Below, piece after piece: positions 10,691 through 30,897 of a DNA stretch of 64,000 bases. This DNA comes from Scolanthus callimorphus. Taxonomy: Eukaryota > Cnidaria > Anthozoa > Actiniaria > Edwardsiidae. Position 1 is the stretch's first letter, and each line of letters starts with the position of its first letter. The stretch is taken from positions 2,108,001-2,172,000 of the forward strand of contig CM066915.1 of assembly GCA_033964015.1 (NCBI GenBank), read 5' to 3'. The notes under the pieces were generated by a model. That model had not been told where the DNA came from, did no database searches, and saw only the letters and a program-made list of their open reading frames with translations. A program made the translations under genes and the position numbers.

Positions 10691-10744
10691 TATTTATCGG
10701 AAGATTCAACGGCAGCGCTGATACATGCATTTGTTACATGTAAG

Positions 10745-11335: not shown

Positions 11336-11339
11336 TTAT

Positions 11340-12052
11340 TAATATTATTAGTCCGTCAGTTTTGTAAACTATTTAATATTACCCTCTGAAAAGTCTTATT
11401 ATAATTATTATTATATGCCAGAACCCTTAACCACAAGAAAAATCAGCCAGTTGTGTTTACTGGTACCACTCAATAATTCAAGAGGCCAAATCCAACATCC
11501 ATCCTAAATACAGATTGAATACTCAAGCCTTTAGCTAGTCAAATGCTCAGATGTACAGTACACTTGTAAACAATGTAGAACTAGACTCAGCCAAAATGGA
11601 AAAGGGAATTCAACTCATTTGAAAATTTGACTGGTACCATGTAATTGTAACCCAAGTCTTTACGGACCCTATGTCTGATGGGTGTGACAATGTTATGATT
11701 GGTTTGTTGTGTTTATCTAATATGGTGGACATTTTTAAAAATAACACGTTTGTTGTTCTATGACTTTGCATCACATACATCAGTTTTAGACCAAAGGACC
11801 AAAGGATGGATCAAAGGATGGATCAAAGGATGGGTCAAAATTCCATGAGATTTTAACGGATTAAGTTCACTACTTTTACCGTTCCATCATGAGCATAGCC
11901 TATAAAATGGCCTTTTTTGGGCTACAAAACTACATGTCACGCCCATCAGGGTCTTTAAACTATTGTGACCATAACCTCTTGGCACCCATCTTTAAAGGTA
12001 GCATTTCTCAGACATGACTGATGACACTTGCATATCTGGAAGCATCCAATGC
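11340..12052. other. Intergenic or intron sequence, no gene
   Basis: AT-rich, with a short tandem run of GGATGGATCAAA-type units near 11800-11840. No open frame with recognisable content. Confidence 0.4.
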
Positions 12053-12074
12053 TCAGCGGCATTCCCTTAATTCA

Positions 12075-12145
12075 GCTTGCTCTTGTTGTTGTTGTTGTTG
12101 TTGCTCTTGTTGTTGTTGCTGCTCTTGTTGTTGTTGTTGTTGTTT
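12075..12145. repeat. (TTG)n microsatellite
   Basis: Imperfect TTG/CTC triplets. On the minus strand they read as an in-frame Gln/Glu-rich tract that directly continues the C1 exon if the donor at 12183 is not used; the frame then ends at TGA (12053-12055). Confidence 0.7.
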
Positions 12146-12182
12146 TTCTGCTAGCAACCTCTCCATTTTCTCCTGATAATAC

Positions 12183-12243
12183 CTACATGTATAGAACCAT
12201 GTCACTTTGTCCAGGCACTTCTTGTGCACTACACAACGACACT
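12183..12243 (-). CDS. C1 domain module 1, third exon
   Basis: It encodes ECRCVVHKKCLDKVTWFYTC, the C-terminal part of a C1 zinc finger with His and three of the Cys ligands. The acceptor is TTTTTCCCAG; phase 1 entry matches the 32-nt exon at 12804-12835. The proposed donor TGTAG|GTATTA leaves phase 2 and would fit the first exon of module 2. If it is not used, the frame reads on through a polyglutamine tract to a stop at 12053. The CRCVVHKKC block is nearly the same as in module 2 (CRCVVHKRC), so the two modules are close paralogues. Confidence 0.75.
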
Positions 12244-12803
12244 CTGGGAAAAATCGAACATTGTTACAGTATCATAAAAGGCTGATACCACTTATTGTAT
12301 CTACCCATCCTCACTTAGCTCTACTTGTGAGAAAAACATGTTCTGTCTGCACACATGAAACTTCAAAATACTCAACTGATTTTTGGGTAGGGGTGTGCCG
12401 CCCACATTTAACTCAACTCAACTTTATTATCTTTTCTTAAAATATTACAGAGATGGCACATCACCTGCAAATAGCATAACCCGCCCTACCATAGACCTAC
12501 AGTTAAAATTGTATTCCCTACAGCAGACCTAAAGTAAGTCACCAGGGTGGTCCAGTTGAACACAATCAAAGCGGAGTTGTTAATCATGTAAATGTTTTAA
12601 AATAAACTGTCTTTGAAATTTGTTTGTAGGGTAGCCATAATGAAATACATACCCTATCAGAGACCAAACAAGTGAAAACCAATACCCTATAGCAAGACCC
12701 ATCCCCCATCCCCTACTGACCCCCGGACAATACTGTTAGAGCATGAACATATGAATGTGTCATAACTTGACACGACATGAAATGTGCTCTATTTTCATCT
12801 TAC

Positions 12804-12835
12804 CTTTACACTGAAAGCCTTGGTGGTAAAACCCC
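12804..12835 (-). CDS. C1 domain module 1, 32-nt middle exon
   Basis: Another 32-nt exon with the same phases as that of module 2. It is flanked by TTTCTTTAG and AAAG|GTAAGA and encodes WGFYHQGFQCK, the C1 core W-G-x-x-x-Q-G-F-x-C. The identical exon length and phases in both modules show duplication of a split C1 unit. Confidence 0.8.
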
Positions 12836-13096
12836 CTAAAGAAATATGAGGGTCGGAATAAAAGCAGAAAAGTAAAGTAAAGTATAAATAACATAAAAAC
12901 AAGCATATCATAGTGCTACAGTAATCATTGCAAGCAGGTTCAGAAGTAGAGCAGTTCACAAGTAGGCTCACAGGAGTGTGGGGAAGTCTGCTTTCCTGGA
13001 CTTTAAGGGCTAATTCTTGAGTGTGGAGTCCAATCTAGATTTCTATCCTAGCAGAACTGCACTTGTGTACCTTATTGGATTAATTTTCAGGTCGCT

Positions 13097-14452
13097 TTAA
13101 GGAGGCTGCCTACAATTTTTTCTGCTCTCCACCACCAAACTTTGTTTGCCTGCTGTTCAGGCTCAAAAACCTGTACCGGTCTGAACTTTCAGATGGTTAC
13201 CCTGTGAAATTTATTGTAGTGTGCATATTGTTGTGATCGGAGTTGCTATAGCAACGTTATAACCACACCCTTGTTTATAATAGCGCTGCCATCAGACGCA
13301 TTGCGCGACCTAAACTTTTAAAATGACACCCCTCACACTAATCCCTGAGTACGGTAGCTAGCATTAATCACAGCAAGTTTGGAGAGAATTCATTGGGCTG
13401 GTTTTATGTTATTCGAACTGACTTTTTCAGGCTCCAAAATGGCAAAGCTATTTATGCCGCAAATATTTCCTTGACAAAGAATGGCTAATATCTGCGAAAT
13501 TAAGAAATCCTTGCCGCCCAAATAATCTACAAACCCAAGGCAATGTACCAGCCAAATTTCACTTCTTAGAATGCTTCCGATTTTGTTTGGCATGTGTTCA
13601 AGGAAACTGCAAAATTTGAGAAATTATATTATAAATCTTCCGTTTGTTATAAAACTTACACTTTTCGCCTCTGACACAAATCTCATATGTTAAAGTTTTT
13701 GATACTTCCGTAAATTATTCTTGAATATATACCAAAGATAACCTCCAAGTCTTGAGTTCATTGAAGTATTTTAAGGCACCGAGAAAATATGCCAAACTTC
13801 ACTACTCTTTTGGTTTGCTCGAGCCGGTTTTTGTCATTGTACTTTGTTTTCACCTGTTGTAGCTTTCACGTGGTTTTCCCTGTAATCAGTGAAGTGAACT
13901 ACATTCCAGCGTGTTCAACATTCATACTCTAAAAGCGAAGCGAATAACAATCCAACAACATTAATTATGAACGTTAACTTGATAATGCTGAGCTTTCTAA
14001 CTCTTTGTCTTTAACCTCCCACCACTGCCTGGCTGGCAACCACTCGCTCTTCAATTTATCAGTTCTTCTGCCTTCCTCTTTTTCGATTTTCTTGGAAAAA
14101 ACATGATAGAAAATCATACGCTTTGCCGCTTCCTTAGCAAGCGTGACGGCAAACTGCGCGGAGAAATCATTGAGCCATAGACGCAATGTTTGATTCCCAT
14201 GCTGGAATGTAGTTGGCTGGGAAACCGACATCAAATCTACGACAGGTGAAAACAAAGTACAATGACAAAAACCGGCTCAAAAAACGTTGCTATAGCAACT
14301 CCGATCACAACAAAATGCACACTACAATAAAGTTCAAACCCTCCAGGGTAAATATGTGAAAGTTCAGACTGGTACAGGTTTTTGAGCCTGAACAGCAGGC
14401 ATACAAAGATTGGGTGTTTTAGGGCAGAAATTATTGTAGGCAGCCTCCTTAA
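13097..14452. mobile_element. 1.36-kb TTAA element with long inverted repeats
   Basis: Both ends are TTAAGGAGGCTGCCTACAAT, and the inverted repeat continues with small differences for about 165 bp (shared blocks TGCCTGCTGTTCAGGCTCA and GATCGGAGTTGCTATAGCAA). A second inverted pair lies further in (AAAGTACAATGACAAAAACC at 14253 and its complement near 13823). TTAA at both outer edges fits piggyBac-type insertion. The longest inner frame (13974-14255, minus, 93 codons) shows no transposase motif, so the element is probably non-autonomous. Confidence 0.75.
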
Positions 14453-14919
14453 TTTCAAGATTTTCGAGATTTAAAAAAAGCAACATGAAAAAAAATTCCT
14501 GCAAACTATAATGTCGCAAAATTTAATACCCTCATTAATATTTCTTGTTTTTCAATTTAATGAAGAATTCACGGCTACAATGTAATATGTATTATACAAT
14601 TACAAAAGCGTTAGCAGAAGGTGATCATGTCTTTGGCTATGCTATGGTACTTGATGCGGTTTCTGTGGTTTGTTTTGTTATGAGTTGATGATTTTCATAA
14701 ATTAGAAGTATAAACTAATAATACAATTCTCAAAATAAAATGATTTTTTTTCATTTTCACCTTTTTTTCGCGAAATTAAGTGCCCGCAAAAATTAGTACT
14801 AATAAGGTACATTTAAGAGATTCAAGAAAATCTGATATAGTCTTGCATTGCAGCCCAAAATCTCCCTGTATTTCAAACATCACAATTTTTTTAGCTTTTA
14901 GGACACTAAGCTAATTATG

Positions 14920-15195
14920 TAGAAAAGGACCGGAAGTTGTGGAAGGTAATAACAGGGTCGACTCCTACAGCCCTGGATGACCTCCTTCCTCCACTGAGAG
15001 CTCGTACGCTCAGGAGGAGGGGGCATCCTTACTTGCTTCCGCGCGTACGCACTGAGCGGTTTAAGAGCTCTTTCATTAATTGTTGCCTTTTTTCCTACTT
15101 GTAATTAATTATTGTATATTGTAAATTTCCATGTCTGTCTGGAGATATAATTGAATAAAGACTATTATTATTATTATTATTATATTATTATTATT
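14920..15195 (+). pseudogene. LINE 3' end
   Basis: A short frame ends in a LINE-like C-terminus (GHPYLLPRVRTERFKSSFIN…), followed by a 3' UTR with AATAAAG and a (TTA)n tail that continues to about 15195. Only the last ~60 codons remain, so this is a heavily 5'-truncated copy. Confidence 0.65.
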
Positions 15196-15199
15196 ATGT

Positions 15200-16480
15200 A
15201 CCGAATTGCCTTTCAAACAAAAAAATTGAAACTTCACAGTTTAATAACTTACAATTTGTATGGTGAGCACCAACATATTGAAAGCAGAGAATTTATTTCA
15301 TTGAAGCATAGCTTTCTGATAGTTCGAGAGCTTTGATTTTACTATCCCTTCTTGCCACAATGAACTATCGCTTGAACAAAAAAAGAAATCTTTTTTAAAT
15401 TTACAGGATATAAAATAAAATCAAGGAATTTCCAGAAGTTTCCAGGAAGCATACAAACCCTGTTTTCATTTCAAAACAAGTTACAAAAAAAATAGACATA
15501 GACAGTTTTCATTTTAACATGGTTAGAAATATCAGGAAAAAAAATACTGTTGTAAACATGTTTGCCATATGACATAGTATGTCACAGGCTTAGAGAGCTT
15601 TCATGGAACACCTGGAAGTTTGCTTTTCTGATTATTTAGTCAGGAGAAAATGGGGATAACACTACACAAAATGGTAATGCTTCCTCTGTAAATTTGTAAA
15701 AAATGTTTTCCCTGAATGTTTACTATAATTTTGTACTAAAGACATCCTCTAGCTATACATCCCTGCTACTGTTATCATCAAAATAACATATCATTTGTCA
15801 CTGAACTACATTTAACCCTGACTTGGCAGTTTCATGCCTTTTTCAACCTCATATTTTGACAGTTTCATGCAATTTCAAGGATGTCTTGTCTCATCAAAAT
15901 TCAGCTGAGCAAATTATTCTTAAGCTCATTAATAATTCATCAAGCTTAAACAAAGAAAAACATAATTATGAGGTTTGGACACACAGTCTTTCTATTTGCA
16001 TAGATTTTTTAGATTATTTTTGGTCCTTCTTTCCTTGTTTTTAAATTATTTATTCAAGAAGCTTTATCAAAAATTCGAAAGTGTTTTTCAGCAGGATTCC
16101 AAACACCAAAAAGTCAATTAAAAATCTCGGCTTTGCTTGTTCATTTCAACACACTTCTCTGTGTTTGGAAATTCTGATTGCGTTAAAATATATATAATAT
16201 ATAATTTTATATATTTCAGAATCTCAGATCTGTGGTTTCCTGACCATCCCGTCAATCCCAGTCTTATAAAAATGCATATCAGGGTTGTCGGCAGCATTGG
16301 CAATTGAATGGGATGCAATCAGGAAAATAGAAACTGTTTCTATTATCCCAGTTGCATCCCAGGCGATATTTGACGTCACCGATCGTTCACAAAGCTGTGT
16401 TTCATATATCGGGAACTGACAAGGATGGTCGGAAAATCAGCCATACCAGATCATCCCTGACAGTCGCGACGTATGAAAAA
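15200..16480. other. AT-rich spacer, no gene
   Basis: No coding exon, RNA gene or clear repeat structure was seen. It lies in the first intron or upstream spacer of C1 module 1. Confidence 0.4.
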
Positions 16481-16486
16481 CAGCCT

Positions 16487-16815
16487 TAAAGGTGCAATCA
16501 AATGGTGATGAGAGGTGATGAGAGTTTTCCGTTTGATCGCAAACTCTCATTGACTCTCATGCACTTTGAACACTTTGAGTTGTTGACCGTTTGATTGTGC
16601 GGATGAGCTTTTTTCAGTCAGCAGCTGCCGCCAAAAGAACTGCAGGTTCATTTGGTTCCTGGAATGCAGGCTTTCCTCCACTGACAGGAACTGGGTGCTA
16701 GTGCTCACCCTGACTCTCAGCAACTCTCATCACCATTTGATTGCTCCTCGTGAGAGTAGATGAGAGTGGATGATGGTTGGAACTCTCATTAGCTCTCATC
16801 ACCGTTTGATCCCTG
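16487..16815. mobile_element. MITE rich in CTCTCATCACC repeats
   Basis: The left end AAAGGTGCAATCAAATGGTG is matched inverted by CACCATTTGATTGCTCC near 16730 and again by CACCGTTTGATCCCTGC near 16800. Multiple CTCTCAT motifs lie between. The left border carries TTAA, the right does not. Non-coding. Confidence 0.5.
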
Positions 16816-17247
16816 CTTAGACTTCTCTTTGGCATTTTTTCACGTTTTGAATTCAATTCAGGTTCAGGTTGCTGGTCGTGGGCAAGCTAGTTTGAAATGA
16901 GCTTTGAACTCGTTGTTTCATGCCCCACACCCTCAAGTCAGTCAGGACCTTATCGCGAATTCTTCCGGTGTTTTGCAAACAGAGAGTAAAACACACGGTA
17001 AAGCTGAAACACAACCCGAAAAACTCCGTATTATACTCTCTCATTAAACTCAACACACTTACAAATATAGCGGACATGAAATCAAGCTCAGATTGATAAG
17101 CAGTCTGTAGTAAAACATAACTAAAGGAAAGGGAAAAGCATTCAGTTTTCCTATATTATACACACTAGAAGCAAGATGTAAGCTCACTGTTTATTCGCAC
17201 TTCGCACCCCTCGACATGTTTATATAAAGTGGTCGCATTCAACTTAC

Positions 17248-17396
17248 CAGATCATACTATGGCATTGCGAACAAATGGTTGGCTGTTTAAAGGTTGTTAC
17301 TGCAAATTCGTGGCCACAAGCTATATGTTTTTCGCCCTCTTCCAGCTTCTTTTCCTCTTCTTCTTCGGTCAATAAAGTCTGGTAGTTGGCGGCCAT
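17248..17396 (-). CDS. C1 domain module 1, first exon with start codon
   Basis: Translation starts at ATG in good context (AACATGG) and reads MAANYQTLLTEEEEEKKLEE, then GEKHIACGHEFAVTTFKQPT and ICSQCHSMI, ending at ATCTG|GTAAGT in phase 2. This is a short acidic leader followed directly by the first half of a C1 domain (His, then Cys-x2-Cys). Together with the exons at 12804 and 12183 it completes all eight zinc ligands. The absence of any C2 domain upstream makes this unlike a standard novel PKC. It could be a PKC-related fragment, a different C1 protein, or the first exon of a tandem-C1 gene continuing into module 2. Confident as a C1 exon, unsure of the family. Confidence 0.75.
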
Positions 17397-19305
17397 GTTT
17401 GTTCTTTGCTGAAAACAAAACCCACAATCCTTTGTCAAGCGGGGCGTGGAGTGGTCACGCAACGGTCACGCAAGCGCCAGGATCGGTCGGCCCTGGATGC
17501 AATCTTTCCAGCTTTGGCCAATAAGTCCGTATCTAGAAATTTGCACTTTCTATTCAGGAAGATAAAAACCAACATAAGGAACGCTGGAAAATCTAGGCCT
17601 GAATTTATGCTGAATAAAGACACTATGCGGAAGGTTTTCGTGCTTTATTCACTATAACTAGCAGTATCTATGTAGATAGTGAAGTGCTCGGAGGGGAAGC
17701 TAATCTTTGCAGAAAGTGTTTTGTTTAGTGTATAAAAATGACGCGTCTCAATATTGTATACAGTGCAAGAAATTTAATAAACTATTAAATTGTATACATA
17801 CTGTAAGTTTGAGAATTATCAATGTGATCTGAAGGTTGCCAAATGAAAAACACATTTCAACTTTTTTCTTTCTTTTTGTAGCTGCTTGAGGAATATTTCT
17901 ACAGTTCTTAGGAACATTTCAGAAAATAGCACTATTGCTACAATTAAATGTCTGCTTGGTCTGTTATGAAACAAAGTTCTTGTTTACTCTAATCCTCTAA
18001 CAACAACATTGGATGTTAACAGTTGATTCAATGGTTAACCAGTGATTTGATTTCTAAACAATATTAGCAAACTTCTCCTGGTGGCATAATGACTTCTGCT
18101 GTAGTTATCCATATGTATGAGGGGTGTAGACAATTGCACAATAAAATATCAATGTACATAGTATGTTTCAGGAATTAGGTCCGAAGTCAGAAACATAATT
18201 TCTAAAGCAGGATTTGCAATTGCAGTAGATTGGTTTCTGGTGTTGGTTGAATATTCTAGCTGCACAGCCATTTTCTTGATTCAGTTCTGGTATTGTTTCA
18301 GACGAGTAATAATAACAGCATTATACTTTTCATGCATGAGATACAACATCGAACCAGTTTTTTCACATTATTTTACCAAAGTCAGACATTTTGTTCTTGA
18401 CATAATTATTTCCATAATAACAGACACTGGTGTCCTTGCAGTTGATGTCTATGCTTGGTCAGTTCTGACACTGTAAAAGCTTCCAATCATCTGCTGATTG
18501 TCTCCATTTTGTCGTGTTGTTCATAGAATGCAATAACTTGGCCCCTTGCTACCAGTATATAACGGCACAATAATTCTTTGCCCATATCCATTTTTTAAAC
18601 CTTGTTCGGATAGCAATAACAATTTAGGTTTTGGTTCCTGTGACAGTTTTTTTTTCTCTGCAATGATAATATATGATGTCTCTCCCTTGATTTGTTGCTT
18701 GCTGTAGAGATGGGGGTTCCATGTAGATAATGTCAGGTCTTCATATCATTTCTCACATGAAATCAGTGGATGGCAACTTGCAACCACTGAAGAGAATGTT
18801 GTGCTGGTTGCTTAGAGGGGATATCCATTATGATGCTAGGATGGATCTACAAAAAGAAAAATAATTAAAAAGAGGAACAACAACAACAATAAAAGATTGT
18901 ATTATCATTTACTTACCTGGACAAACACAACAAATACACATTAAATGATATTGCATAAAGGGTGTGCTATTTTTGGAAAATTTTTTGCCCCAATTTATTC
19001 AGCTTATTGTAAGCTGTGACAACTGTAGCAACAAATATTGGGTACTTTGCTTTTAATAGGCTATTTTGGTTCTGGACCACATAAGGCAATTGAAGTATGA
19101 ATAGTGCAACATCCAGGCAATTTCCCTTCTGGTAATGTTTCAGCTTTATTACTGGTTTGTACTACAGCAGCTAACTATGAGCTGCCTGGTAATGTATACA
19201 GCTTTATTACTGATTTGTACTACAGTGAGCTGCGCATCTATATAGGTTAGCCCTCAACTAATTACAATCCATACCTCCTCTTAAATTCTGGAATTCAGAG
19301 TTTGT
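17397..19305. other. Upstream region of the C1 gene, no gene seen
   Basis: Probable 5' flank or promoter region for the minus-strand C1 start at 17396. Short frames on both strands lack domain content. No repeat structure was resolved. Confidence 0.35.
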
Positions 19306-19817
19306 TCATCTAACATGAGAACTGAATGAATAGTCATTGCTTTTGAAAGAATGGTCAAACTTTGATCTACATGGCCTTAATTTTTTTAGCCAGGCAATAA
19401 AATTGGCTGAAAAATGCTGTTTGTAGTTATAAGCAAGAACACTCAACTTTGATGACTTAGGGGCAGCTTTTTTCAGCAGAAATTTAATTATACTTCTCAA
19501 TTTTCTTTTGCTTAATACCTGCATAAGTTTTTTCACAGGAATTCTAGATGGAGCACGATCCCTAATTTTTCTTTCTTTGTTATCTTTACTGCGTTTCTAA
19601 CAGTACTTCTGTAGTAACTTTGCATGCTAGTATTTCTGATTTTGCTACACTGTTCAGCATGTTTGTCACAGGAATTAGACATACAACTATGTGTACCTGA
19701 GGTCACCACAGTTTTCAAAGTTATGTTTTCACTGGTGTCAGTTGACAATTTGCATTGAGGCTCATTGGCCATTGTAATTGATTTGTGTTCTTGTTCGACA
19801 GCAACAACTGCAGCCAT
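19306..19817 (-). pseudogene. Candidate small basic protein, broken by one frameshift
   Basis: A frame starting ATG at 19817 (MAAVVAVEQEHKSITMANEP…) runs 94 codons. A second frame on the same strand, one base out of register, continues from about 19575 to 19306 with a Lys/Arg-rich composition (RIPVKKLMQVLSKRKLRSII…). A single-base change in the run near KITKKEK (about 19570) would join them into about 165 residues. No family is recognised. The join may reflect pseudogenisation, an assembly error or two chance frames. The 410-bp tandem duplication lies just upstream of the start. Confidence 0.3.
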
Positions 19818-19840
19818 TATGATGGTCGTGCCTTCGAATT

Positions 19841-20660
19841 CTCTCTAGAACTCGGGAGAAACGGCAGTGAAAATGTTCTCACACCAGTGAAAAATACGCT
19901 TTGAAAGCTGCGATAACTTGTTAAAAGGTAATTGAGGCAATTAATAGCTTTAACTTACCGATAATCTCAGCCAAACTTCCCAATAAACATCCACATCGAA
20001 CAGCTAGCCCACGAGGAAAGAAATCTACCTGTGCAAAGGAGCACGGGAAGGCGTGCCACGGAACCCAAAAATGACACTCGCCGATCAGAAAATAATCGTA
20101 CTGCGCATGCACCACAGGTACAAGAAAACAAGAGGCTGCAATCAGGGTTTGTAAAACAGTATAAAAAACAAATGTAAAGCGGCACGTAATGCATACTAAC
20201 GTGCAAATGAAGGCAAGATTAGACTTGCTCTCCGCTCGCTGCGCTCGCTTTCTCTCTAGAACTCGGGAGAAACGGCAGTGAAAATGTTCTCACACCAGTG
20301 AAAAATACGCTTTGAAAGCTGCGATAACTTGTTAAAAGGTAATTGAGGCAATTAATAGCTTTAACTTACCGATAATCTCAGCCAAACTTCCCAAAACATC
20401 CACATCGAACAGCTAGCCCACGAGGAAAGAAATCTACCTGTGCAAAGGAGCACGGGAAGGCGTGCCACGGAACCCAAAAATGACACTCGCCGATCAGAAA
20501 ATAATCGTACTGCGCATGCACCACAGGTACAAGAAAACAAGAGGCTGCAATCAGGGTTTGTAAAACAGTATAAAAAACAAATGTAAAGCGGCACGTAATG
20601 CATACTAACGTGCAAATGAAGGCAAGATTAGACTTGCTCTCCGCTCGCTGCGCTCGCTCC
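19841..20660. repeat. Tandem duplication, two ~410-bp units
   Basis: Units start at 19841 and 20252 with CTCTCTAGAACTCGGGAGAA and end with CGCTCGCTGCGCTCGCT. They are nearly identical; one clear difference is a 3-base TAA deletion in the second unit (CCCAATAAACATCC versus CCCAAAACATCC). Each copy carries a short minus-strand frame, but there is no hammerhead core on either strand. Only 34 bp separate it from the 344-bp retrozyme repeat. Confidence 0.85.
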
Positions 20661-20885
20661 GAGCAATAAGTGGCAGTTAATGACTGTAGCCATATGTCGA
20701 AAGGTTAGTATGGCTAACCGACGGACTTCTCTAGCTTGGTCTCATTGCGTGATCCATACATTGGCATAACGCTAGCCCGGTCGCAGCTAAAGGTCCCACA
20801 TGGGTCTTTGCTGTGGTTTAAAGCACTTCGATTTTCGAAGTCGCCTCTGCAGTTGTTTGCCAATGAAGTTTACTGAGGCAAACAC

Positions 20886-20942
20886 CGGCTATGCCATGCT
20901 GATGAGTCCTAACAAGGACGAAACAGCTGTACATGGTTGCCG
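20886..20942 (+). ncRNA. Type I hammerhead ribozyme, copy 1
   Basis: All core elements are present: CTGATGA at 20899-20905; stem II GTCCT/AGGAC closed by an AACA loop (20906-20919); GAAA at 20920-20923; then ACAGCTGTA with predicted cleavage after A20931 (the GUA cleavage triplet). Stem I is formed by GCCATG-side bases 20894-20898 with 20932-20936 (five pairs). After an internal loop, CGGC (20886-20889) pairs with GCCG (20939-20942), which could provide the loop contacts that raise activity. Stem III is minimal (palindromic ACAGCTGT, almost no loop). That is known to favour cutting as a tandem dimer, and fits the duplicated arrangement. Confidence 0.9.
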
Positions 20943-21229
20943 AACTGCACGGGTAATAGACTGTGCTAGCGTTCCGTCTAGGCCAGACTTATGCCGATGT
21001 GTGTATAGTTAGTGTTCATTCTCACTTATTATATTACATGTCGAAAGGTTAGTATGGCTAACCGACGGACTTCTCTAGCTTGGTCTCATTGCGTGATCCA
21101 TACATTGGCATAACGCTAGCCCGGTCGCAGCTAAAGGTCCCACATGGGTCTTTGCTGTGGTTTAAAGCACTTCGATTTTCGAAGTCGCCTCTGCAGTTGT
21201 TTGCCAATGAAGTTTACTGAGGCAAACAC

Positions 21230-21286
21230 CGGCTATGCCATGCTGATGAGTCCTAACAAGGACGAAACAGCTGTACATGGTTGCCG
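21230..21286 (+). ncRNA. Type I hammerhead ribozyme, copy 2
   Basis: Exact repeat of the first ribozyme, displaced by 344 bases. CTGATGA is at 21243-21249 and the predicted cleavage follows A21275. All paired positions are unchanged, so both copies should be able to act, and to act together through a double stem III formed between the two palindromic ACAGCTGT segments. Confidence 0.9.
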
Positions 21287-21639
21287 AACTGCACGGGTAA
21301 TAGACTGTGCTAGCGTTCCGTCTAGGCCAGACTTATGCCGATGTGTGTATAGTTAGTGTTCATTCTCACTTATCATATAAGAAAGTGTTGTCGTTTTTAT
21401 GGCAATTCCGCGCGGGTTGCCTGTGGTGTTCAAAACGTGACTCAGGCCCTTCGGCGGGAGGTAAAACAAAATGGCGACGAGGAGAAGAATGTTTCTCGAG
21501 TATCTGCAAGTTTTGGTCAATTTTCCTGCTTTATTCGTCAAGATGTGAGGAAAAGTACTTACAGACCTTCCAAATAAGGTAAGGGGGAATTTCCTAATAA
21601 GGAAGTTTTGCAACGTCGGCAAAACGACAGCTCTTGGCG

Positions 21640-21763
21640 AAATTTTCTTGATATGCAAAACCAATTACAAAGTAATTACACCAATTCTGAATAAAACCTG
21701 TTGGAGTAATTGCAAAGTAATTGCGAATTACTCACGACAGCGTCGTCTGAAATCTGCTCTAAA
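21640..21763. mobile_element. Remnant of the TA-flanked MITE family
   Basis: The right end CGTCTGAAATCTGCTCTA and internal AATTACTTTGTAATTG motifs match the family at 2335 and 4383. A full left terminus was not found. Confidence 0.45.
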
Positions 21764-22309
21764 GCTATACATAATTTAACAAAAATGTTCGGCGGGAAAC
21801 AGGTGCTCCCAAAGCATTGAATACGCCCCACTGCATTGAGATACGCACTGCACGATGTCATCAGCTCAGCTTACCACTTCTGATGTAAATTTAGTTTATT
21901 TAATAGTTTGGCTTCACGAGGTACGGTACGTATTCGTGTGACGGTATTCAGGCGCCTGTAGTACAAAAGCGTCTGTGATGTTTCGAAACCCTTCATCAGC
22001 GTGAAAGGTTGGAAAGTGCACTTTTGTCAAGGAGGGGTAGTCAATGGCCCATAAAATATCAAGAGTCTCGCCAAATTTTAGCAGAGTCTCGGAATTCTTG
22101 ACGTGCCGCGTCTCGGAACCTCGGATTTCGCCCTCAAACGTCTAAACACAGTATATGAGCTGATATTTTCTTCAGTGTAGGGCTCGGATTTTAAACTGTC
22201 AGTCTCGGTGTAATGTTTTCCACGCGGCTAAACAGCGAAACACGAAGGAAACATGTGTCCGGCTACATAGTTGCGTGCTACATGCGTCCTGCTCTTGCTT
22301 ACCATCTGT

Positions 22310-22530
22310 TTAGGTAACAGAAGACCACGGCGTTGTCAGCTTCGTGGAGTTTGGTAGTTGGGTTTTCTGTGTTGTCAACCCGCAGATCCTATCCTGGGAA
22401 ATTAGTACCCATTCTGGGAGTTACCCTAGCCGGCCTTCTTTGGAGTTTACCGAGGACCCTGGCGCGCGACTCGACCCAGTTCTCCCAAGTGCATTCAGCA
22501 AAAACGACAATGGTTCATTGATGTGACACT
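22310..22530. repeat. Diverged half of the 1.9-kb MITE
   Basis: GTTTAGGTAACAGAAGACC, GGCGTTGTCAGCTTCGTGGA and GGTAGTTGGGTTTTCTGTG match the left arm of the element at 1905-2166. The inverted right arm is not clear here. Confidence 0.5.
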
Positions 22531-22601
22531 TTTCATCAGATTTCCCTTGAGCGGGAACTCATTAAGAGGAGCCTCCACTGCTACTTTACAAGCTCTAGCC
22601 A

Positions 22602-22785
22602 TATGCACAGGAGTACAACAATCCAGTGGGATTTTCCGCGACAATTGGTACTTGCGCAGTGTTTGCTGTGTGATGGCGCGCCGATTTCCTTAGTACAGGG
22701 ACATTATCTGTAACCATGACAACTAATTGTCGCGGAAAATTCAAAATCTACAATCTAAAAATAGATTCATATACTCCTGTGCTTC
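22602..22785. mobile_element. Small inverted-repeat element
   Basis: GCACAGGAGTA and TTTTCCGCGACAATT on the left pair with AATTGTCGCGGAAAA and TACTCCTGTGC on the right. Non-coding; it abuts the minisatellite that follows. Confidence 0.55.
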
Positions 22786-23025
22786 GGACGCCCAGCAATG
22801 ATGGAGGTGATGGAGACTCCTGGTGATGGGTTCCCTGTGCTTCAGACGCCCACCAATAGAGGCTCCTGTTGATGGGCTCCCTGTGCTTAGGACGCCCACC
22901 AATAGGTGATGGCGGCTCCTGTTGATGGGCTCCCTGTGCTGCCCACCAATGGGTGATGGAGGCTCCTGTTGATGGGCTCCCTGTGCTGCCCACCAATAGG
23001 TGATGGAGGCTCCTGTTGATGGCTT
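22780..23025. repeat. Minisatellite, ~45-60-bp units
   Basis: About five imperfect copies of a unit containing GGCTCCTGTTGATGGGCTCC, CTGTGCT and CCCACCAATAGGTGATGG. The last units are the most alike. The minus-strand frame across it is a repeat artefact. Confidence 0.75.
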
Positions 23026-23263
23026 CTAGTTCGAGCCGTTGAATCGAGCAATCATTAAGCGCTGCTAATGACGCTATGTTGTAAAACTGGCCAAATGTAC
23101 CCAAGTGCATCCACGATCATGTGCGACTTTGTTACGTTTGTTTGTAGAGACCACATCCACTAATTCAAGGCCAGAAAAGAATAGGAGTTGCTTCTGCAAA
23201 CAGAGTCTACGTCACGACCTTGAGACACTCACGAGAACTCATCGGATTCGCGAGTGCATTAAG

Positions 23264-23475
23264 CATTAGAGCACAACTTTCTATTACTTTATCGGCGAAA
23301 TAGAGCACGCGTGATGTTGGGAGAGACACATTGTGAAATATCAACATCAACATCAACATCACAAGTGCTCTATTTTTCCGATAGTCATAGAACGCTGATA
23401 GCGGGGGAAAACTATTACTTTGGTGAAATAGAGCATACATTTGGACCAATCAGGACGCGCGTTATATCATAGCTA
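23264..23475. mobile_element. Foldback MITE, TTAGAGCACAAC family, second copy
   Basis: Shares ATTAGAGCACAAC, CGTGATGTTGGGAGAGACAC and GCGCGTTATATCATAGCTAT with the element at 7547. The hairpin loop has gained a CAACAT run. Confidence 0.6.
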
Positions 23476-23666
23476 TATCATATTAGTCAAATCACACTAG
23501 TGGTCTATTGTCAATGCTGCGTTGTGATTGGATGAGCTACTAGTAGGCTATAAGTTATAGCCTATTAGTAGCGAAGTGTCGGATTTGAGAGCCAGAAAGT
23601 GGCAAATGACCAGAAAAAAACGTTTTTGGCTACACAAATTGACCTACTAGTGTGATTTGACTAAAA
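23476..23666. mobile_element. Inverted-repeat MITE
   Basis: The ends are AGTCAAATCACACTAGTGGTC and its near complement GACCTACTAGTGTGATTTGAC; an inner pair surrounds TAGGCTATAAGTTATAGCCTA. Inserted directly against the preceding MITE. Confidence 0.7.
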
Positions 23667-23766
23667 CAATTATTCCTCTCGCCCTCATGGCCTCTGGGTC
23701 AATAGCCTATTCGGCCTCATGGGCTATTGACTTGCCCATTCGGGCTCGAGGAATAATTGCTAAATA
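23667..23766. mobile_element. Short palindromic element
   Basis: ACAATTATTCCTC…GCCC and GGGC…GAGGAATAATTG are inverted, with further inner pairing around CAATAGCC/GGCTATTG. It makes a third foldback in a row. Confidence 0.65.
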
Positions 23767-24249
23767 GAAGACAAAAGACAGTATTGCCTAGTGCGAGAAG
23801 TTTATTACATTTCTATAATATATATCATATATAATATATATATTAAATTCTCTTTGTACCGACGTCAATAATTGGCAGTTTCTACAAAAGTTCACGGTAG
23901 AAAATTGTTACAAAAATAGATTATAAAATCTACACTGGTACTAGCGAGTAAATGCGCGAGACGACGTGGAAGCGTGACTGACTTGCGTGACTACATAATG
24001 GGACTGATCGCATTTTCAGCAGTAAATCTTTCTCAATTTCAGGAATAAATACCTGGACTCAGTTGTAATTTTTTATGGTGTTTTTGTGCTTAAAATTGAG
24101 TCCATTTTACTGCAGTTTTCACAATTCTGCGAACTTTGTAACAACAGTGAAAGTCGTGTTTCAGCTTCCTTCGATCGCACAACTAACACTAAGCAATCAC
24201 TAAAATCACTGAGGTTTTACAGAATGTGCCAGTTGCTTAGTTGTTCGCC

Positions 24250-24412
24250 TGCGAGACGGCTCTCCGGTATTTTTTTCCCCGGATATTTGATTTTTTGGGC
24301 GCGCGGGATTCCTGTGCGCTTTCACTTTTTTCCTTCCGCGACACAGGAAACCCGCGCACCCAAAAAATCAAATATCCGAAAACAAAAAACCCACTGGAGA
24401 GCCGGCTCGAAC
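24250..24412. mobile_element. Palindromic MITE
   Basis: The arms CGGATATTTGATTTTTTGGG and CCCAAAAAATCAAATATCCG are perfectly complementary, flanked by GGCTCTCC and its complement GGAGAGCC. The element forms one long hairpin. Confidence 0.75.
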
Positions 24413-24629
24413 TCGCAGACTACTTAGACTACAATGTAATTAATTCGTGATGGGTTCGCAGAAATACGAAAACCACAGGAAGTGAGAAAACGAGTCAACT
24501 TCAAATCATTTTGCATTCTCGACTGCATTTTAAGGTGTCCCATGGCTAATTCACTGGAAACACAACCCAAAATAAATCACCATATCTGCCCAAAAACGAC
24601 ATATTTTTATCTGGGGACAACGGCCTCTT

Positions 24630-24860
24630 CGGATAAGACATTAGCATCCGCCATTTTCACAGCATAGCAACATAACAAGTCGGAGAGTTGTGAGCGTTTC
24701 TATCGGCTGATTTAGAGAACATTTAGCAATTTTCTCGATTGAATTTGGTAAATCAAATCTGAAACTTTGTTTATAGATGTTGATTTAGATATTTCTACGC
24801 GATATTCGTCTTTTAATATCGAAGGAAAATAATAACAAAGGCTCTTAAGGTTTCCAAACA
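24630..24860 (-). repeat. Dispersed repeat family A, inverted copy
   Basis: Read on the minus strand, blocks AATCAGCCGATAGAAA, TTACCAAATTCAATCGAGAA and AAACAAAGTTTCAGATTTG match the copies at 44620-44825, 45095-45330 and 59575-59775. Confidence 0.55.
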
Positions 24861-24869
24861 AAACAGGGC

Positions 24870-27800
24870 CGTCCCACTCGGAAACGCCACATGACAGAAT
24901 TGTACTTTTGTTATAAATATTGTTTTCTTGTAAATTAGCCATGTTTCACCTTAACATTGTGTAAAAAAAGTTTGTAATTGGGAATTTCAAAGTTTTGCCT
25001 GATATTTACAAAGGAAAACAGAACAAATAGGACATCAGCAGCAGTGATGGGGCAGGACTATAGCAAAGCTAACATTAGAGCCAAGGCAGCCAATTAGAAA
25101 ACAGTATGTACTGCACATGCGCAATGGCCACGGGCCTTTACTTTTACTCCAAATACGAAGCTGTGGTATTTACTATCACGAAAACATGGACAGATATATT
25201 TTTATGGAATAAAAATGCATCCTTAGGGTCCAGAAATTGATTTAATTTCATTACTCGCTGTTTCTGTAATGAACTTTCATTCAAACAGTTTTCAAGCGTG
25301 ATCAAACAAGCGAGAAAATCTACTACATTTAATTACCATTTCGAATTACCGTGAACGGTAATCTTTTTTTTATGTTGCTTGTGCTTGAAAACATGCGCGT
25401 TTTGTCGGCGTGATACATCAAGTTTCTCGCAAGCTGATTGGCTAAAACATAACATCAAATGTACCCCAATTCTGCAATAGCCAATCAACGTGCAAGAAGC
25501 TTGAAAACATGTCACCAAAATGTGCATGCTTTTAATTCCAAACGACGGAAAAAAGTTTGCCGATCACGTTTTTACTTGACAATGGTAGTAAAGAACTTTG
25601 GATAAAAAAATCTGGACCCGAGAACGTAAAACTAGAAAGGGATACACGAATGGAAAGCCAATGCATTAAAGAAACCATTCAGCTCTATTATGCTGCAGTT
25701 AAAGGTAAGGAAACTTTAAATGTGCCAGACGCGCTAATTGAAGCAAAAACAATCACTTCGTCTTTGATGCTCATGGGGGAAGACTAGACCTGTTCCCGCC
25801 TTTTTAGCGCGCGCGCGCCGCCACACAGGGATCCCATCCCCTCCCTAGATATAGTTAACACGGCAAGTACATGTGCCATAAAATATTGTCGGATTTAAAG
25901 GTGTGAATGGTTCACTGTATTAGATACTAGCTGAATGATTTCGATTGATGATTTTAAATTTTGTGCGCTAGTTTTGGCGCGATAGAACATTAAGCATGCA
26001 TTCTACAAGAGAATAACTAATTTTCTACACCCTTTATAAAACTCCCTTTCAAAAGCGTGCATGCGCTGTGGCATAGTAGTTAAAAAATTTGTCAGAAAAC
26101 AGTGCACAGTACTTCCTCAACGGTTGAATGATAACCATTTTTCCAGGACCAGAATTTAGGTTATCTTGTTTTTCAAAGTTCTAAACTGGTAAGAGTTACC
26201 GTGGATAGTTAACGTAAATAACTAAATGTTTCATCTTCCAGTCGATTTTTCTGCATTTTCAAGTTCTTACATTAAAGATTAAAGATCTCAATAACAACAG
26301 ACTTCAAACACTTAACTTGCTTTTTGATGCTTTTTAAGGCATGTGGAGTTGAATGCAAATGAATACAAAGTGAATGCTTATAAACTGAAAGTGAAAACTA
26401 AAAAGTAAATACAAATAAATGAAACGTGAATACCAATAATAAATAAAAAGTGAATAAATCTGAAGAAAGGTGAATACTTATCAATGAAATATGAATGCTT
26501 ATGTATGGCCGGAAATGCAGCCAAATCGAGATCGATTTTCTCAAATATTTCTATTGCCAGAAGCTCCAAAAAACGAATAAAGCTGGACACCCTGAACTGA
26601 TGTAAAACGTAGGCTTTGTGGCTAAATCCGTTTTTCGCGCTGCACATTTTGAAAAGGTCGCTTTTGTGTTGGGATTTGGGGGTTTAGTTCCGCCAGACAA
26701 ACCATCTATATCAGGTTCTTGTCTTGTCACTAGTGCAGTCGCCTGGCTTTCCGTCCCGACAAAAAAACCATTTGACTGCACTAGGCAAAATAGGGCAAGG
26801 ATCTGATTGGTCCACACGTTTGACTGGCGGAACTGAAAACCCGTGTTTTTAAAATTCCCGTTAACCAACCATTTTGGGGGTAAATTGTATTTTCGGTATC
26901 TGTAACGTTTAATTGTTTTCCACTTTTAATGATCAAGGTATCTGGATCAGTCACCAGAACGACAATGCTGTGTGCACTATTTCCTGACAAATTCAAACAC
27001 CCGGACCGAAGCCCTACAGTCCATATACTGGAGAGTCCTAACTCTAATTATCGTCTGTACATGATTACCCAGTTATATTACACATATTTTACCTTAGTCA
27101 TATTTCCTGCCAGTCGGTTTATTTCCGCGGTACAATAGAGTCTTGTGGATGCTATTCTTGTTTCATAACATATATCTTTTTACATTAGCATTATTCACGG
27201 GGTTGCTGTGGTAACCACCGCTGCCTTGAGACTGGCACTAGACAATCTCCTATTTGAAGGCTTTATACGCATGCTCAGACTTAATGACCTTACTCGTTTT
27301 CTTCCTTGCATCTTTTACCTGCGGGAGCTTAATATCCACGAGGTGCCGAGCCATGGTTCACATGATATATGTCCACCATTCACGTGAAGAACACGTGGCC
27401 ACAAATCAAGCGTTCTCCTCTCGAATCTCCGTCTCTCATTTTTTGGTGAGAACTTCACAGGAGAGAGGAGACTGGGGCTTAGGGCCCAGATCTCTCGGCG
27501 CGTATGATCACGTGATGAGATCACGTGGTATCAACTTGTCCTGTTTCTATTTGAAGACTTCAAAGACCTGAAACAAAACGTGGGAACAAACCTCGGTGTG
27601 AAACTCGTTGGCCTTTTGGGATGCATAGCCTTTTTGCTTAGAGAACGTCAGAAAATAGGAAGGGCAATCGATGTTGTCCTAATTGATTTAAGAAATGTAG
27701 GGGCACAAAAGTTGTGGACGAAGGGAAGCGGCCTAAACATATTTACCGAGGTGGACCCGAGAAACCGGCACTACCAACCTAACCTATTCTTTTTGGAAAA

Positions 27801-27925
27801 AAATATCATTTCAATTGAAAATATCTCGTGAATAAAAATGTACTCAAGATTCCACTCAAGATGAAAACTCGCACCCCTTTTCAGCGTATCAAGTCTGTGC
27901 GAGGAGCATTTCTGATTGGCTGAAT
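24870..27925. other. Mostly unique sequence; weak exon-like frame
   Basis: The clearest coding-like piece is on the plus strand at 25557-25700 (…KELWIKKSGPENVKLERD…), ending at a good donor (TTAAAG|GTAAGG). It has no clear acceptor or start and no family assignment. A similar weak frame (AQKLWTKGSG) appears near 27710. A repeat related to 3435-3620 lies at 26725-26825. Nothing else is supported. Confidence 0.25.
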
Positions 27926-27929
27926 TTTG

Positions 27930-28540
27930 TTTCGCCTAGATTCCCGCCTTTTTTGGCGGACACAGGAAACCCAACAAAAATATTTTGTTCATCGGCTTTT
28001 TGCCTTTGACACACAGCAGCCATCTTGGATTTTCTAATACAGCGAAGCAGGCATGAAAGTGAGGCCAAGCGTGTTAGCTCACCCACGCATAGTCATTTCT
28101 GTAAGAAAATATCCAAGATGGCTACCGTGTGACAATTAACCATTATCCTGCGAGATTGCGCAGAATATCGTCTGATACTTAGCCGACGAGGGACGAAGTC
28201 CCGAGTTGGCTAAAATCAGACGATATTCTGCAAAATCGAGCAGGATAATGGTTTTATTATTCAGCACATCGATAGCACAAAACCCCCCGAAAAAGGTGAC
28301 TTTTGTGTATTATTTACGAGCTCAAAACATCACATTTTCCTCAGAGACGGATATCGCAGGATAGCTGTCATGTACAGAAGACAGCTATTGTCGTTCCAAT
28401 GACCATATTTGGGCAGTGCATTGAAGTGCTGAATAATAAAGGCAAATAGCCGATGAACAAAACATTTTTGTTGGGTTTCCTGTGTCGCCGCGCGTGCGCC
28501 AAAAAAGGCGGGAATCTAGGCGAATAGTGAAACAATATCA
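27930..28540. mobile_element. Nested foldback elements (at least three layers)
   Basis: The outermost arms contain TAGATTCCCGCCTTTTTTGG and AACCCAACAAAAATATTTTG with complements at 28440-28530. Inside, CCATCTTGGAT pairs with ATCCAAGATGG near 28115. A separate palindrome at 28138-28254 (AACCATTATCCTGC…AGAATATCGTCTGAT and complement) and a fourth pair, TTATTATTCAGCAC…GTGCTGAATAATAA (28255-28440), are also present. No coding frame. Confidence 0.7.
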
Positions 28541-29349
28541 ACGTCAACTGTGATATTCAAAATCTTTCAGTAGCTAAACGTTTTCGGAATAAGGAGGCGA
28601 GTTCTTTGCTGGTAGCTAATACACTTTGGTCCTCATCAATTCTGCATCGAGAAAATGACAAACAGGGTAGGGGCGGGGCGGAGTCATTTTCCCGAGTCGA
28701 GTCAACCGCGTGTACACATGTTTTGACAGCTTCCAGAGTTCTGCATTCAAATGGATGTCAAAGTTGGAATACATGATTGTCAGAGTGGAGGTTAAAAGCA
28801 TCAAATTCGGGAGAACTGAGGAATACATCGCGTCCTCAGATTATTAACTTAACTAGGGTTAAATTAAAATTCATTTAACCATATTAGTTTAAAAGTAAAA
28901 TTAGTTTAACACACACTGTTAGCACTGTGCGAAGATGTATGTGTCGTTAAATCAAACCAAATCCGCATTGGAAAGAAATATTACTGGAATAATCAAATTA
29001 TGATTGAAAATGTATTAGATGTCTCTTGTAAACATACGGGAAAACACACGCGGCATTCGGTTGCGAAAAGTACGAGGAGCAGCGTACCGTTTCTTGTCCC
29101 TTTACCTTAAATCAAATAAATTATATTTCCACTTCAACTTCCTGCCAGTAGCCGTGTTCAAAACAGCGATTGGGCAAGAAAAGCTCGTCCAAATCTTGCT
29201 GGGGGGTAATGTCCGTTAACTCCAAGGATGTCCTGAAAGATAGCACGGCCGATCACTATTGGTGCCTTGTCTTGCTTGTGCCAGAAAGGGAAGCCTATTT
29301 TTTAAGTCTACGCGGGAAAACTACGACGGCACCTGTGGATTTTCTCCCG

Positions 29350-29706
29350 TCTTGGAGTGAACGAAAACCAAGAACTTGTGTTGCTTGTGCCAGTTGGAGT
29401 GGAGAGTACAGAAAAGCAGGCGAATGCAGCGGTGAAGACGCGATAGCAGAGTACATTTACAGGTCGAGGATAAAGAAAATATATACATAGAAAGATAAAG
29501 CTACAAAGAATTTTAATTCTTCGGACCTCGAGCCTCTGGTTTCCAGGGTAAGAGTGAACGAAAGCCAAGAACTTGTTATGCTTGTGCCAGTAGGAGTGGA
29601 GAGTACAGAAAAGCAGGCGAATGCAGCAGTGAAGACGATAGCAGAGTACATTTACAGGTCGAGGATAAAGAAAATATATACATAGAAAGAAAAAGCTACA
29701 AAGAAA
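29350..29706. repeat. Direct duplication, two ~157-bp copies 197 bp apart
   Basis: Copies at 29353-29510 and 29550-29706 share GAGTGGAGAGTACAGAAAAG, GCAGAGTACATTTACAGGTC and AAGAAAATATATACATAGAA with few differences. Each can be read in more than one frame and is preceded in the second copy by a TTTCCAG acceptor-like motif. Whether it was ever an exon is unclear. Confidence 0.7.
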
Positions 29707-30897
29707 TCGGACTAAATTTTAATAGCGAATTTCATTCACATAATATGTTGTCTGCAAGGACGTTTTGGTTCAGAAAGTGGTTGTTAACAAGAAAATAAAT
29801 TTAAAATATTTCAAACCTTATGAAAAAAATTCATAGAAAAAAACTTCAACCGTACTACAGTATGATGGCAACATCGTTTGACTTCACGATAGAAAAACCC
29901 TATAATTTCTACCAGATTCAGTGATCAATTAATTATAATTTTTAGTCCCACAGAATCTATCAAAAGAGGTCTAAGGTCTAGCATGGATTTTCTATCTGTT
30001 CATCATTTTAAGGTGACTTTATAAGTGCTATTTTTGTTGATAATTGCGTCATTTGTTACGTGTTATCAAGAAACTAAGCTTGCAAACATTTTTAGAAAGA
30101 TTGTTAAATTAATTTGCTTTCTTTCATTAGCAAAGAATTATAGAAATCAACTGGAAGTGCAAGCTTAAAAACTACTTTTCGTTTGAGCTAGAATTCAGTA
30201 AAGCGAAATTTCAAATAAAGTATTTCAAAATACTCTAGTTTTATACTCATTGGTCGCGATTATCAATTTCCCACGGGAACCCTGTGTCGTGAGAAGCGCG
30301 GTCTTTGAAAAAAAAAAATGCGTATAAGAAGAAACGCAACGATTGATGCACTGAGTGAAAAAACGTGAAGACAGCATGCAAAGAAAGCCACGTGGACGCA
30401 GATAGCAACAAGAACATAAATACAAAAACGTTTCAGCTTTCCCTTAAATTTGTTGTCAATAGGCTTCCCTTCAGTAGAACTTGGCAAGCAAGGCTCTTCC
30501 TTTGATGCTAAATACATAAAACTTGCAAATAAATTTTGAAAATCAATAAATTGTTATAAGTATGCAGTTATGCAACGTGTTGATTTGACTCGAAGTCCTG
30601 CTTTGGCAATGAAAATCAAACGTCTTCCAACATGGATACTGGATATTGTGTCCTCAGCTTTTTCTAGCGATGAACTCGTGTACAAAATGTGAACAAATAA
30701 ATATGGTACGTTGTAGATTCTCGCTATGAAAAATATCATTATGCCGACCAAAATGTTGACTGATTAAATCACGTGTAATTGTTTGCTGCAAAATTAGAAA
30801 TTCAGCCTGATTTCAAGCATCATTATGTAGAAGTAATATCTTTTTATTGCAGTTTTTGCGATGTGAGCAGTTAGTCTGCAATACTACTGCCATTCAC

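What the first reader, a model, noticed from the sequence alone, without database searches (positions are those of the whole stretch)
20694..21381. Retrozyme: two identical 344-bp units each with a consensus hammerhead ribozyme
Seen directly: two perfect tandem units, each with CTGATGA, a 5-bp stem II, GAAA, a minimal stem III and an interrupted stem I, on the same strand. Established: type I hammerheads with tiny stem III work best as dimers, and animal retrozymes are tandem repeats yielding small circular RNAs. Inference: this locus makes a 344-nt RNA that self-cleaves after 20931 and 21275 and may circularise. The near-identity of the units points to recent arrival.
Basis: partly seen in the sequence, partly recalled or inferred. 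Interest (0 to 1): 0.88.

Follow-up and report, generated by a model that had tools for sequence, protein, structure and literature searches.

The report
Paired self-cutting RNA repeat, retrozyme-type
This is a twice-repeated 344-base piece of probable coral DNA whose RNA copy should cut itself with a hammerhead ribozyme, apparently best when two copies pair up; it looks like a member of a known class of mobile elements called retrozymes.

Summary
A 344-bp unit is repeated twice at 20694-21378, identical over 336 bp. Each unit carries one type I hammerhead (Rfam RF00163, 33.3 bits, just under the 34-bit cut-off; whole-window E 1.8e-4; no such motif in 500 shuffles). Predicted cuts follow 20931 and 21275. 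Best reading: an animal non-LTR retrozyme, a kind already described in corals (PMC7229834). Two additions. (1) Helix III is almost absent. A single copy is predicted to fold into an inactive trap, two copies into a double hammerhead through the palindrome ACAGCUGU. Of three control hammerheads all leave the core open, two with all three helices. (2) The ribozyme recurs: all 24 proteins found with the ORF across it carry the same 15 residues read from it, on differing flanks, one from Porites evermanni; only 2 of 24 pass E 1e-3. A second ORF, from the body, found no relative. Not shown: transcription, cutting, circles, mobility, copy number. A Penelope-element origin is not excluded. The genome search did not complete (14 tries).

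The parts
20694..21378 (+). whole tandem insert, about 1.99 units of 344 bp
20694..21037 (+). unit 1
   Evidence: differences only at unit positions 337, 342, 344
20886..20942 (+). hammerhead ribozyme 1 with extended, interrupted stem I
21230..21286 (+). hammerhead ribozyme 2, identical
20923..20930 (+). palindrome ACAGCTGT, copy 1: helix III of the double hammerhead
21267..21274 (+). palindrome ACAGCTGT, copy 2
20931..20932 (+). predicted cleavage site 1 (after A at 20931)
   Evidence: plus the hammerhead NUH rule (recalled)
21275..21276 (+). predicted cleavage site 2 (after A at 21275)
20932..21275 (+). 344-nt monomer that double cleavage would release; candidate circular RNA
   Evidence: circular fold -124.9 kcal/mol, z -5.8
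20691..20695 (+). candidate target-site duplication CATAT, left copy (weak; overlaps the first 2 bases of the repeat)
   Evidence: a shared 5-mer occurs in about 6% of random pairs of 12-mers
21374..21378 (+). candidate target-site duplication CATAT, right copy (weak)

Best explanation
A non-autonomous, non-coding retroelement copy of the animal (non-LTR) retrozyme kind, in a probable stony-coral genome, present as a tandem dimer of a 344-bp unit. Read-through + strand RNA carries two identical type I hammerheads. One copy alone is expected to be mostly inactive: helix III has one pair beyond A15.1-U16.1, and the core letters CUG pair with CAG. Two copies in one transcript can pair their palindromic ACAGCUGU segments into a shared 8-bp helix and form a double hammerhead that cuts after 20931 and 21275, freeing a 344-nt monomer. 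A host RNA ligase would close it. The circle holds only one ribozyme and would tend to stay closed. Reverse transcription around the circle by a borrowed enzyme would make new tandem copies. Shown: sequence, motif, repeat, fold predictions, recurrence of the ribozyme as seen in translated form. Inferred: cutting, ligation, circle, retrotransposition, host.
For: Repeat and motif. Double fold: the two-strand minimum-energy fold is the double hammerhead, with one extra pair at the stem I internal loop (-49.1 against 2 x -21.9 for the trapped single strand); in the tandem RNA, opening both cores costs +7.4 kcal/mol as a double and +10.0 as two cis hammerheads. In the circle the trap pairs have probabilities 0.80-1.00. 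Controls: 3 of 3 phage/bacterial hammerheads fold with 10 of 10 core bases open (2 of 3 with all three helices; L001 lacks stem I), the window's with 5 of 10 in 4 of 4 contexts; mean core openness 0.92, 0.73, 0.92 against 0.59. Circular monomer z -5.8 (0 of 300 shuffles as low), antisense z -3.8 against 200. GC 47.1%. No RT or endonuclease domain in 12 flanking frame stretches. The 15 residues read from the ribozyme are invariant in 24 of 24 proteins (64 member sequences by my sum of the table), flanks not. Same kind described in coral, mussel and axolotl (PMC7229834, parts 1-4 of 6 read).
Against: No expression or cleavage data. In the tandem RNA the double fold is 7.4 kcal/mol above the trapped minimum, and opening one cis copy costs less (+5.0) than the double. 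No convincing target-site duplication; Nematostella repeats had 15 bp (PMC4918200 passage). The unit is longer than A. millepora retrozymes (about 225-245 bp). A second ORF from the body found no relative, and genome copy number is unknown because the genome search did not complete. The paired fraction of the circle, 68%, is near the shuffle mean of 63% and below the published 'above 70%'. 7 of 159 window tiles are as stable as the circle. Only 2 of the 24 protein relatives pass E 1e-3.
Confidence: 0.66

Rival explanations
1. The dimer is a pair of pseudo-LTRs, or a remnant, of an autonomous Penelope-like element (PLE). PLE pseudo-LTRs carry minimal type I hammerheads that may also work as dimers.
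For: PLE hammerheads are described as lacking helix III or the loop-loop contacts, and may self-cleave through dimers (PMC7761336 section 8; passages). The Acropora millepora genome has over 6000 type I motifs, of which 1508 are canonical and the others resemble those of PLEs and Terminons (PMC7229834). The near-absence of helix III here fits.
Against: No RT or GIY-YIG domain in the frames scanned beside the dimer (+ 21301-36302 and 15700-20668; - 5000-20001 and 21380-26348); the insert holds ribozyme units only; stem I has an internal loop and a distal helix. Caveats: no positive control for a reverse transcriptase was run, a LINE-like ORF end at 10744-11199 gave no Pfam hit, and full-length PLE proteins lay outside the length limits of the protein search.
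Confidence: 0.2
2. A dead or non-mobile tandem satellite: the unit was duplicated by slippage or unequal crossing-over, is not transcribed, and the ribozyme is a relic.
For: Another two-copy tandem (409 bp, 19839-20658, 99% alike, no known ribozyme found) lies 35 bp upstream, so this spot duplicates DNA or is prone to assembly duplication. No clear target-site duplication.
Against: The ribozyme is intact in both copies, and its translation is invariant in 24 of 24 relatives, which speaks for recent activity or constraint.
Confidence: 0.09
3. Assembly artefact: one genomic unit laid down twice.
For: Two neighbouring two-copy, 99% tandems within about 1.5 kb; no reads to check.
Against: Published coral retrozyme arrays range from dimers to 62-mers (PMC7229834), so a dimer is expected; a false copy would not explain the ribozyme itself.
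Confidence: 0.05

Closest known systems
Metazoan non-LTR retrozymes (Acropora millepora, Mytilus, Ambystoma; PMC7229834, parts 1-4 of 6 read)
   Same: type I hammerhead in short tandem repeats from dimers up, GC below 50%, RNA in the 170-400 nt range, stable fold, cnidarian occurrence
   Different: 344 bp against about 225-245 bp in A. millepora (sea anemone and jellyfish repeats reach about 350); helix III too weak to act alone, whereas those of most invertebrate retrozymes are reported to cut efficiently as monomers (though the review PMC7761336 says helix III is weak in many type I hammerheads); predicted single-copy trap, whereas most published animal circles are predicted to leave the ribozyme free to fold
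Amphibian satellite hammerheads (newt satellite 2, axolotl HHR_Amex1; PMC7229834 and PMC6155905 passages)
   Same: helix III of one base pair with a palindromic tetraloop (AGCU here), looped extension of helix I, repeat of about 330-350 bp, dimer-dependent cutting (only predicted here)
   Different: host is probably not an amphibian; two copies only; here the core itself is predicted to pair with the helix III loop; loop 1-loop 2 contacts not tested
Penelope-like element / Terminon minimal hammerheads (PMC7761336 section 8, PMC11167929 passages)
   Same: type I, hardly any helix III, possible dimer cutting, tandem arrangement
   Different: no RT/endonuclease found beside it in the frames scanned; extended stem I with an internal loop
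Plant LTR retrozymes (PMC4918200 passages)
   Same: tandem hammerheads, non-coding, circular RNA model
   Different: type III hammerheads, 600-1000 bp spacing, LTR/PBS/PPT; not this kind

Membership tests
metazoan non-LTR retrozyme | type I hammerhead motif | tested here: met
   RF00163 full-length match 1-45/45, 33.3 bits (gathering 34), E 1.8e-4 for the window
metazoan non-LTR retrozyme | tandem repeats of about 150-450 bp, at least a dimer | tested here: met
   344 bp x 2.0
metazoan non-LTR retrozyme | GC below 50%, non-coding | tested here: met
   GC 47.1%; longest listed ORF inside one unit 70 aa, whose part shared with all 24 relatives is the ribozyme
metazoan non-LTR retrozyme | stable, highly self-paired monomer RNA | tested here: met
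   circular fold -124.9, z -5.8, 0 of 300 shuffles as low; but paired fraction 68% against 63% for shuffles and 'above 70%' in print
metazoan non-LTR retrozyme | no LTR, PBS or PPT | not tested
   no such search was made
metazoan non-LTR retrozyme | target-site duplications longer than 4 bp where present | tested here: inconclusive
   CATAT, 5 bp, chance about 6%; seven other 5-mers are shared between the wider flanks
metazoan non-LTR retrozyme | multiple dispersed genomic copies | tested here: inconclusive
   ribozyme recurs in 24 of 24 protein clusters; a body ORF found none; own-genome search unanswered (14 tries)
metazoan non-LTR retrozyme | conserved tertiary contacts between loops 1 and 2 (canonical type I) | not testable with these tools
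   both loops are present (UAUG/UU in stem I, UAACAA on stem II), but contacts cannot be scored
metazoan non-LTR retrozyme | linear and circular monomer RNA in tissue | not testable with these tools
   no RNA data
invertebrate retrozyme hammerhead (monomer-active) | helix III stable enough for single-copy cleavage | tested here: not met
   by folding only: one C-G pair plus A15.1-U16.1; single-copy minimum fold blocks the core
Penelope-like element | RT and GIY-YIG coding region linked to the repeats | tested here: inconclusive
   0 such Pfam hits in 12 frame stretches, but no positive control, and decayed copies could be missed
Penelope-like element | minimal hammerhead without helix III | tested here: met
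   helix III nearly absent; stem I however is extended
amphibian-type dimeric hammerhead | one-pair helix III with palindromic tetraloop; dimer more active than monomer | tested here: inconclusive
   first half met; activity only predicted

The most novel reading that the evidence does not exclude
A dimer-key, monomer-lock ribozyme on an invertebrate repeat. The palindrome ACAGCUGU serves twice: in a tandem transcript it is the shared helix III that switches on both cuts; in the released single-copy circle its CAG half captures the core CUG and locks the ribozyme, so that the circle is not reopened. This would answer, for this family, the question left open in PMC7229834: how animal retrozyme circles avoid cutting themselves, the authors having predicted that in most the ribozyme is free to fold. 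The invariant ribozyme translation on differing flanks in the 24 relatives would then mark a ribozyme module kept intact across many coral repeats. (Odds lowered from 0.30 to 0.27 on checking: one of the three folding controls lacks stem I.)
Probability: 0.27. Interest if true: 0.55.

Novelty: new member of a known kind. Interest (0 to 1): 0.38.

Why it matters
It supplies a clean, intact two-copy example in which a single-copy circle is predicted to be locked and a two-copy transcript to cut. That makes an open point about animal retrozymes (what keeps the circles closed) testable with one pair of transcripts. It also suggests that a helix-III-poor, amphibian-like hammerhead occurs on a probable invertebrate repeat. 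The class itself is already described, in corals too.

Tried and rejected
Searches for other copies: exact and degenerate hammerhead patterns in viral contigs (0 hits; 2) and genome contigs (0; 24 with a looser pattern). Of these 26 loci, stem II pairs in 6 (L001, L002, L009, L021, L023, L024), and none pairs more than 2 bp of stem I if helix III is as short as in the window. L001, L002 and L021 I read by eye as ordinary hammerheads with a long helix III, and their folds agree (in L001 stem I does not form). The other 23 were not examined further; 20 of them fail stem II. The three served only as folding controls. A back-translated search with alignment A1 matched 21 stretches of viral contigs, none of them a relative.

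Other known RNAs: the whole-window scan at E up to 1 lists no ribozyme besides the two hammerheads, and the motif scans show none on the - strand. Other matches (miRNA, sRNA and CrcZ models) lie far below their cut-offs and elsewhere. Pol III boxes in the unit: B box no better than 3 mismatches on either strand; A box 2 mismatches at best on the + strand, 0 on the - strand (consensus recalled); not pursued. A coding function of the 70-aa ORF across the ribozyme: thought unlikely, since the residues common to all 24 relatives are those read from the ribozyme. Bias to note: the search requires shared 5-residue words, so some shared stretch is guaranteed; that all 24 share the whole of the same 15 residues is not.

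An early constrained fold let trap pairs persist inside 'two cis' folds (+1.6); it was replaced, where the cores are forced open. Errors of energy models (about 5-10%, recalled) are of the same order as the differences reported.

Full report
What is there. The window holds a 344-bp unit in two head-to-tail copies from 20694 to 21378. The copies differ at 3 of 344 positions, all within the last 8 bases, where unit 2 meets flanking DNA. Each copy contains one type I hammerhead on the + strand. Rfam's model RF00163 matches both over its full length at 33.3 bits. That is below its 34-bit gathering score, so the default scan lists nothing, but the E-value is 3.7e-6 in a local scan and 1.8e-4 over the whole window. 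A positional scan finds only these two sites. A scan asking for core, stem II, GAAA, a short helix III, UH and 4 bp of stem I counts 4 (positions not printed; two sites, each with a 4- or 5-bp stem II, is my reading) and 0 in 500 dinucleotide shuffles.

Anatomy. Letters 20886-20942 read CGGC-UAUG-CCAUG-CUGAUGA-GUCC(UAACAA)GGAC-GAAA-C(AGCU)G-UA-CAUGG-UU-GCCG. Stem I has 5 bp, an internal loop and 4 more bp; stem II has 4-5 bp; helix III has one C-G pair beside A15.1-U16.1. Cleavage is expected after A at 20931 and 21275, 344 nt apart, so double cleavage would release exactly one unit. The unit as a circle folds to -124.9 kcal/mol, z -5.8 against 300 shuffles (0 as low), while the antisense gives z -3.8 against 200. 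Of 159 tiles of the window 7 are as stable (tiles inside the insert may be among them), so the stability is notable but not unique here. The paired fraction, 68%, is only a little above the shuffle mean of 63%.

How it most likely works. A single copy folds, at minimum energy, into a form in which the core CUG pairs with CAG (-21.9; active cis fold -16.9). This holds with 0, 10, 20 or 40 flanking bases on each side, and in the 344-nt circle the trap pairs have probabilities of 0.80-1.00. As controls, three phage/bacterial hammerheads were put through the same program: all three leave 10 of 10 core bases open, and two (L002, L021) form all three helices, while L001 forms helices II and III but not stem I. 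Mean openness of the core is 0.92, 0.73 and 0.92 against 0.59 here, so the contrast is clear in the minimum folds and moderate in the ensembles. Two strands of the window's ribozyme together fold at minimum energy into a double hammerhead, with ACAGCUGU of one pairing with ACAGCUGU of the other and one extra pair at the stem I internal loop (-49.1, against 2 x -21.9). In the 685-nt tandem RNA, opening both cores costs +7.4 as a double hammerhead, +10.0 as two cis hammerheads, and +5.0 for one cis copy alone. The double form is thus the cheaper way to two active cores, but it is not the predicted ground state; tertiary contacts, which stabilise real hammerheads, are not in the model. The inference is a dimer-dependent ribozyme, as shown by others for newt and axolotl repeats (PMC6155905 passages; PMC7229834). 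Ligation by a host tRNA ligase such as RtcB and retrotransposition from the circle follow the published model (PMC7229834; PMC7761336 passages) and are not tested here.

Relatives. An ORF of 70 aa runs through each ribozyme (20800-21012). A search of 5.8 billion proteins with it gave 24 proteins at E up to 1; 2 of them are below 1e-3, 13 at or below 0.01 as printed; one carries an organism name, Porites evermanni. In all 24 the residues YAMLMSPNKDETAVH are identical. These are the codons 20890-20934, nearly the span that Rfam matches (20893-20937). Outside them the residues vary, although the majority share a following stretch (GCHC-GDMAVRMRKVL) that the window lacks. I take this as conservation of the RNA motif rather than of a protein. 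Synonymous changes are invisible at this level, the shared stretch is short, and the search needs shared words, so the recurrence is good but not decisive evidence. A second ORF, from the body of the unit on the other strand, found no candidate; the rest of the body was not searched in protein form. No relative was found in viral or prokaryotic contigs, where records of the window's own genome may be left out.

Host and surroundings. The coral reading rests on this and on the Porites hit; it is probable, not shown. Beside the dimer, 12 frame stretches (+ 21301-36302 and 15700-20668; - 5000-20001 and 21380-26348) gave one Pfam match, a C1 domain below its cut-off near 6 kb on the - strand. Upstream, a separate 409-bp unit is repeated twice at 19839-20658. 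By eye, a possible gene start lies on the - strand at 19817 and another on the + strand at 21471, so the dimer may sit in a shared promoter region; this was not tested.

Comparison. PMC7229834 (parts 1-4 of 6 read) describes animal non-LTR retrozymes in a coral, a mussel and the axolotl: type I hammerheads, tandem units, RNAs of about 170-400 nt, GC below 50%. The window's element meets these sequence features. It differs from most invertebrate examples, which are said to cut efficiently as monomers, in its helix III, which resembles the axolotl HHR_Amex1 description (one pair, palindromic tetraloop); the review PMC7761336 adds that a weak helix III is found in many type I hammerheads, so this is not unheard of. 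The same 2020 paper says that most animal circles are predicted to leave the ribozyme free and that some other block must exist; here the block is predicted inside the motif. Minimal hammerheads of Penelope-like elements also lack helix III and may cut as dimers (PMC7761336 section 8); one lizard PLE hammerhead showed no cutting without added protein (PMC11167929 passages). The key PLE papers (PMC4209133, PMC5785218, PMC5850863) are not held and are known to me only as cited. Searches for retrozyme with coral, hammerhead with Porites, and hammerhead with Cnidaria brought 3, 0 and 8 papers; I saw titles and starts of abstracts, none of which names this repeat, and only open-licence papers are searched.

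Verdict. A real, intact tandem hammerhead repeat, most likely a retrozyme: a new member of a known kind. The dimer-preferring design with a self-lock is the part worth a bench test. What is missing is the genome-wide copy count, which the unreachable tool might have given, and any RNA evidence.

Noticed in passing
window 19839-20658: A second two-copy tandem repeat (409 bp, 99% alike) ends 35 bp before the retrozyme-type dimer; no known ribozyme was found in it, and it seems to cover the region upstream of a possible - strand gene start at 19817.
   Followed up: partly
window 21471-21560: By eye, a possible + strand first exon (ATG in aaaATGGCG, then a GTGAGG donor-like site) about 90 bp after the dimer.
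   Followed up: no
window 62142-63278: Tandem array with periods 150 and 299 bp (6.2 and 3.8 copies, 96 and 93% matches); the last 2 kb of the window have strong strand skew (GC skew -0.15, AT skew 0.26).
   Followed up: no
window 60457-60696 and 7798-7988: Two sub-threshold matches to the plant miRNA model MIR2646 (E about 3e-14, far below the gathering score), perhaps long inverted repeats such as MITEs.
   Followed up: no
window 34697-34975: Minisatellite of a 48-bp unit, 5.8 copies, with an underlying period of 15.
   Followed up: no
P0133 (Porites evermanni, NCBI gene model): A predicted coral protein contains the translated hammerhead, so ribozyme repeats may be swept into gene models as false exons.
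   Followed up: no
L001 4057 (-), L002 6483 (+), L021 6866 (+): What look like ordinary hammerheads with a long helix III in two IMG/VR contigs and one Mucilaginibacter genome bin.
   Followed up: partly
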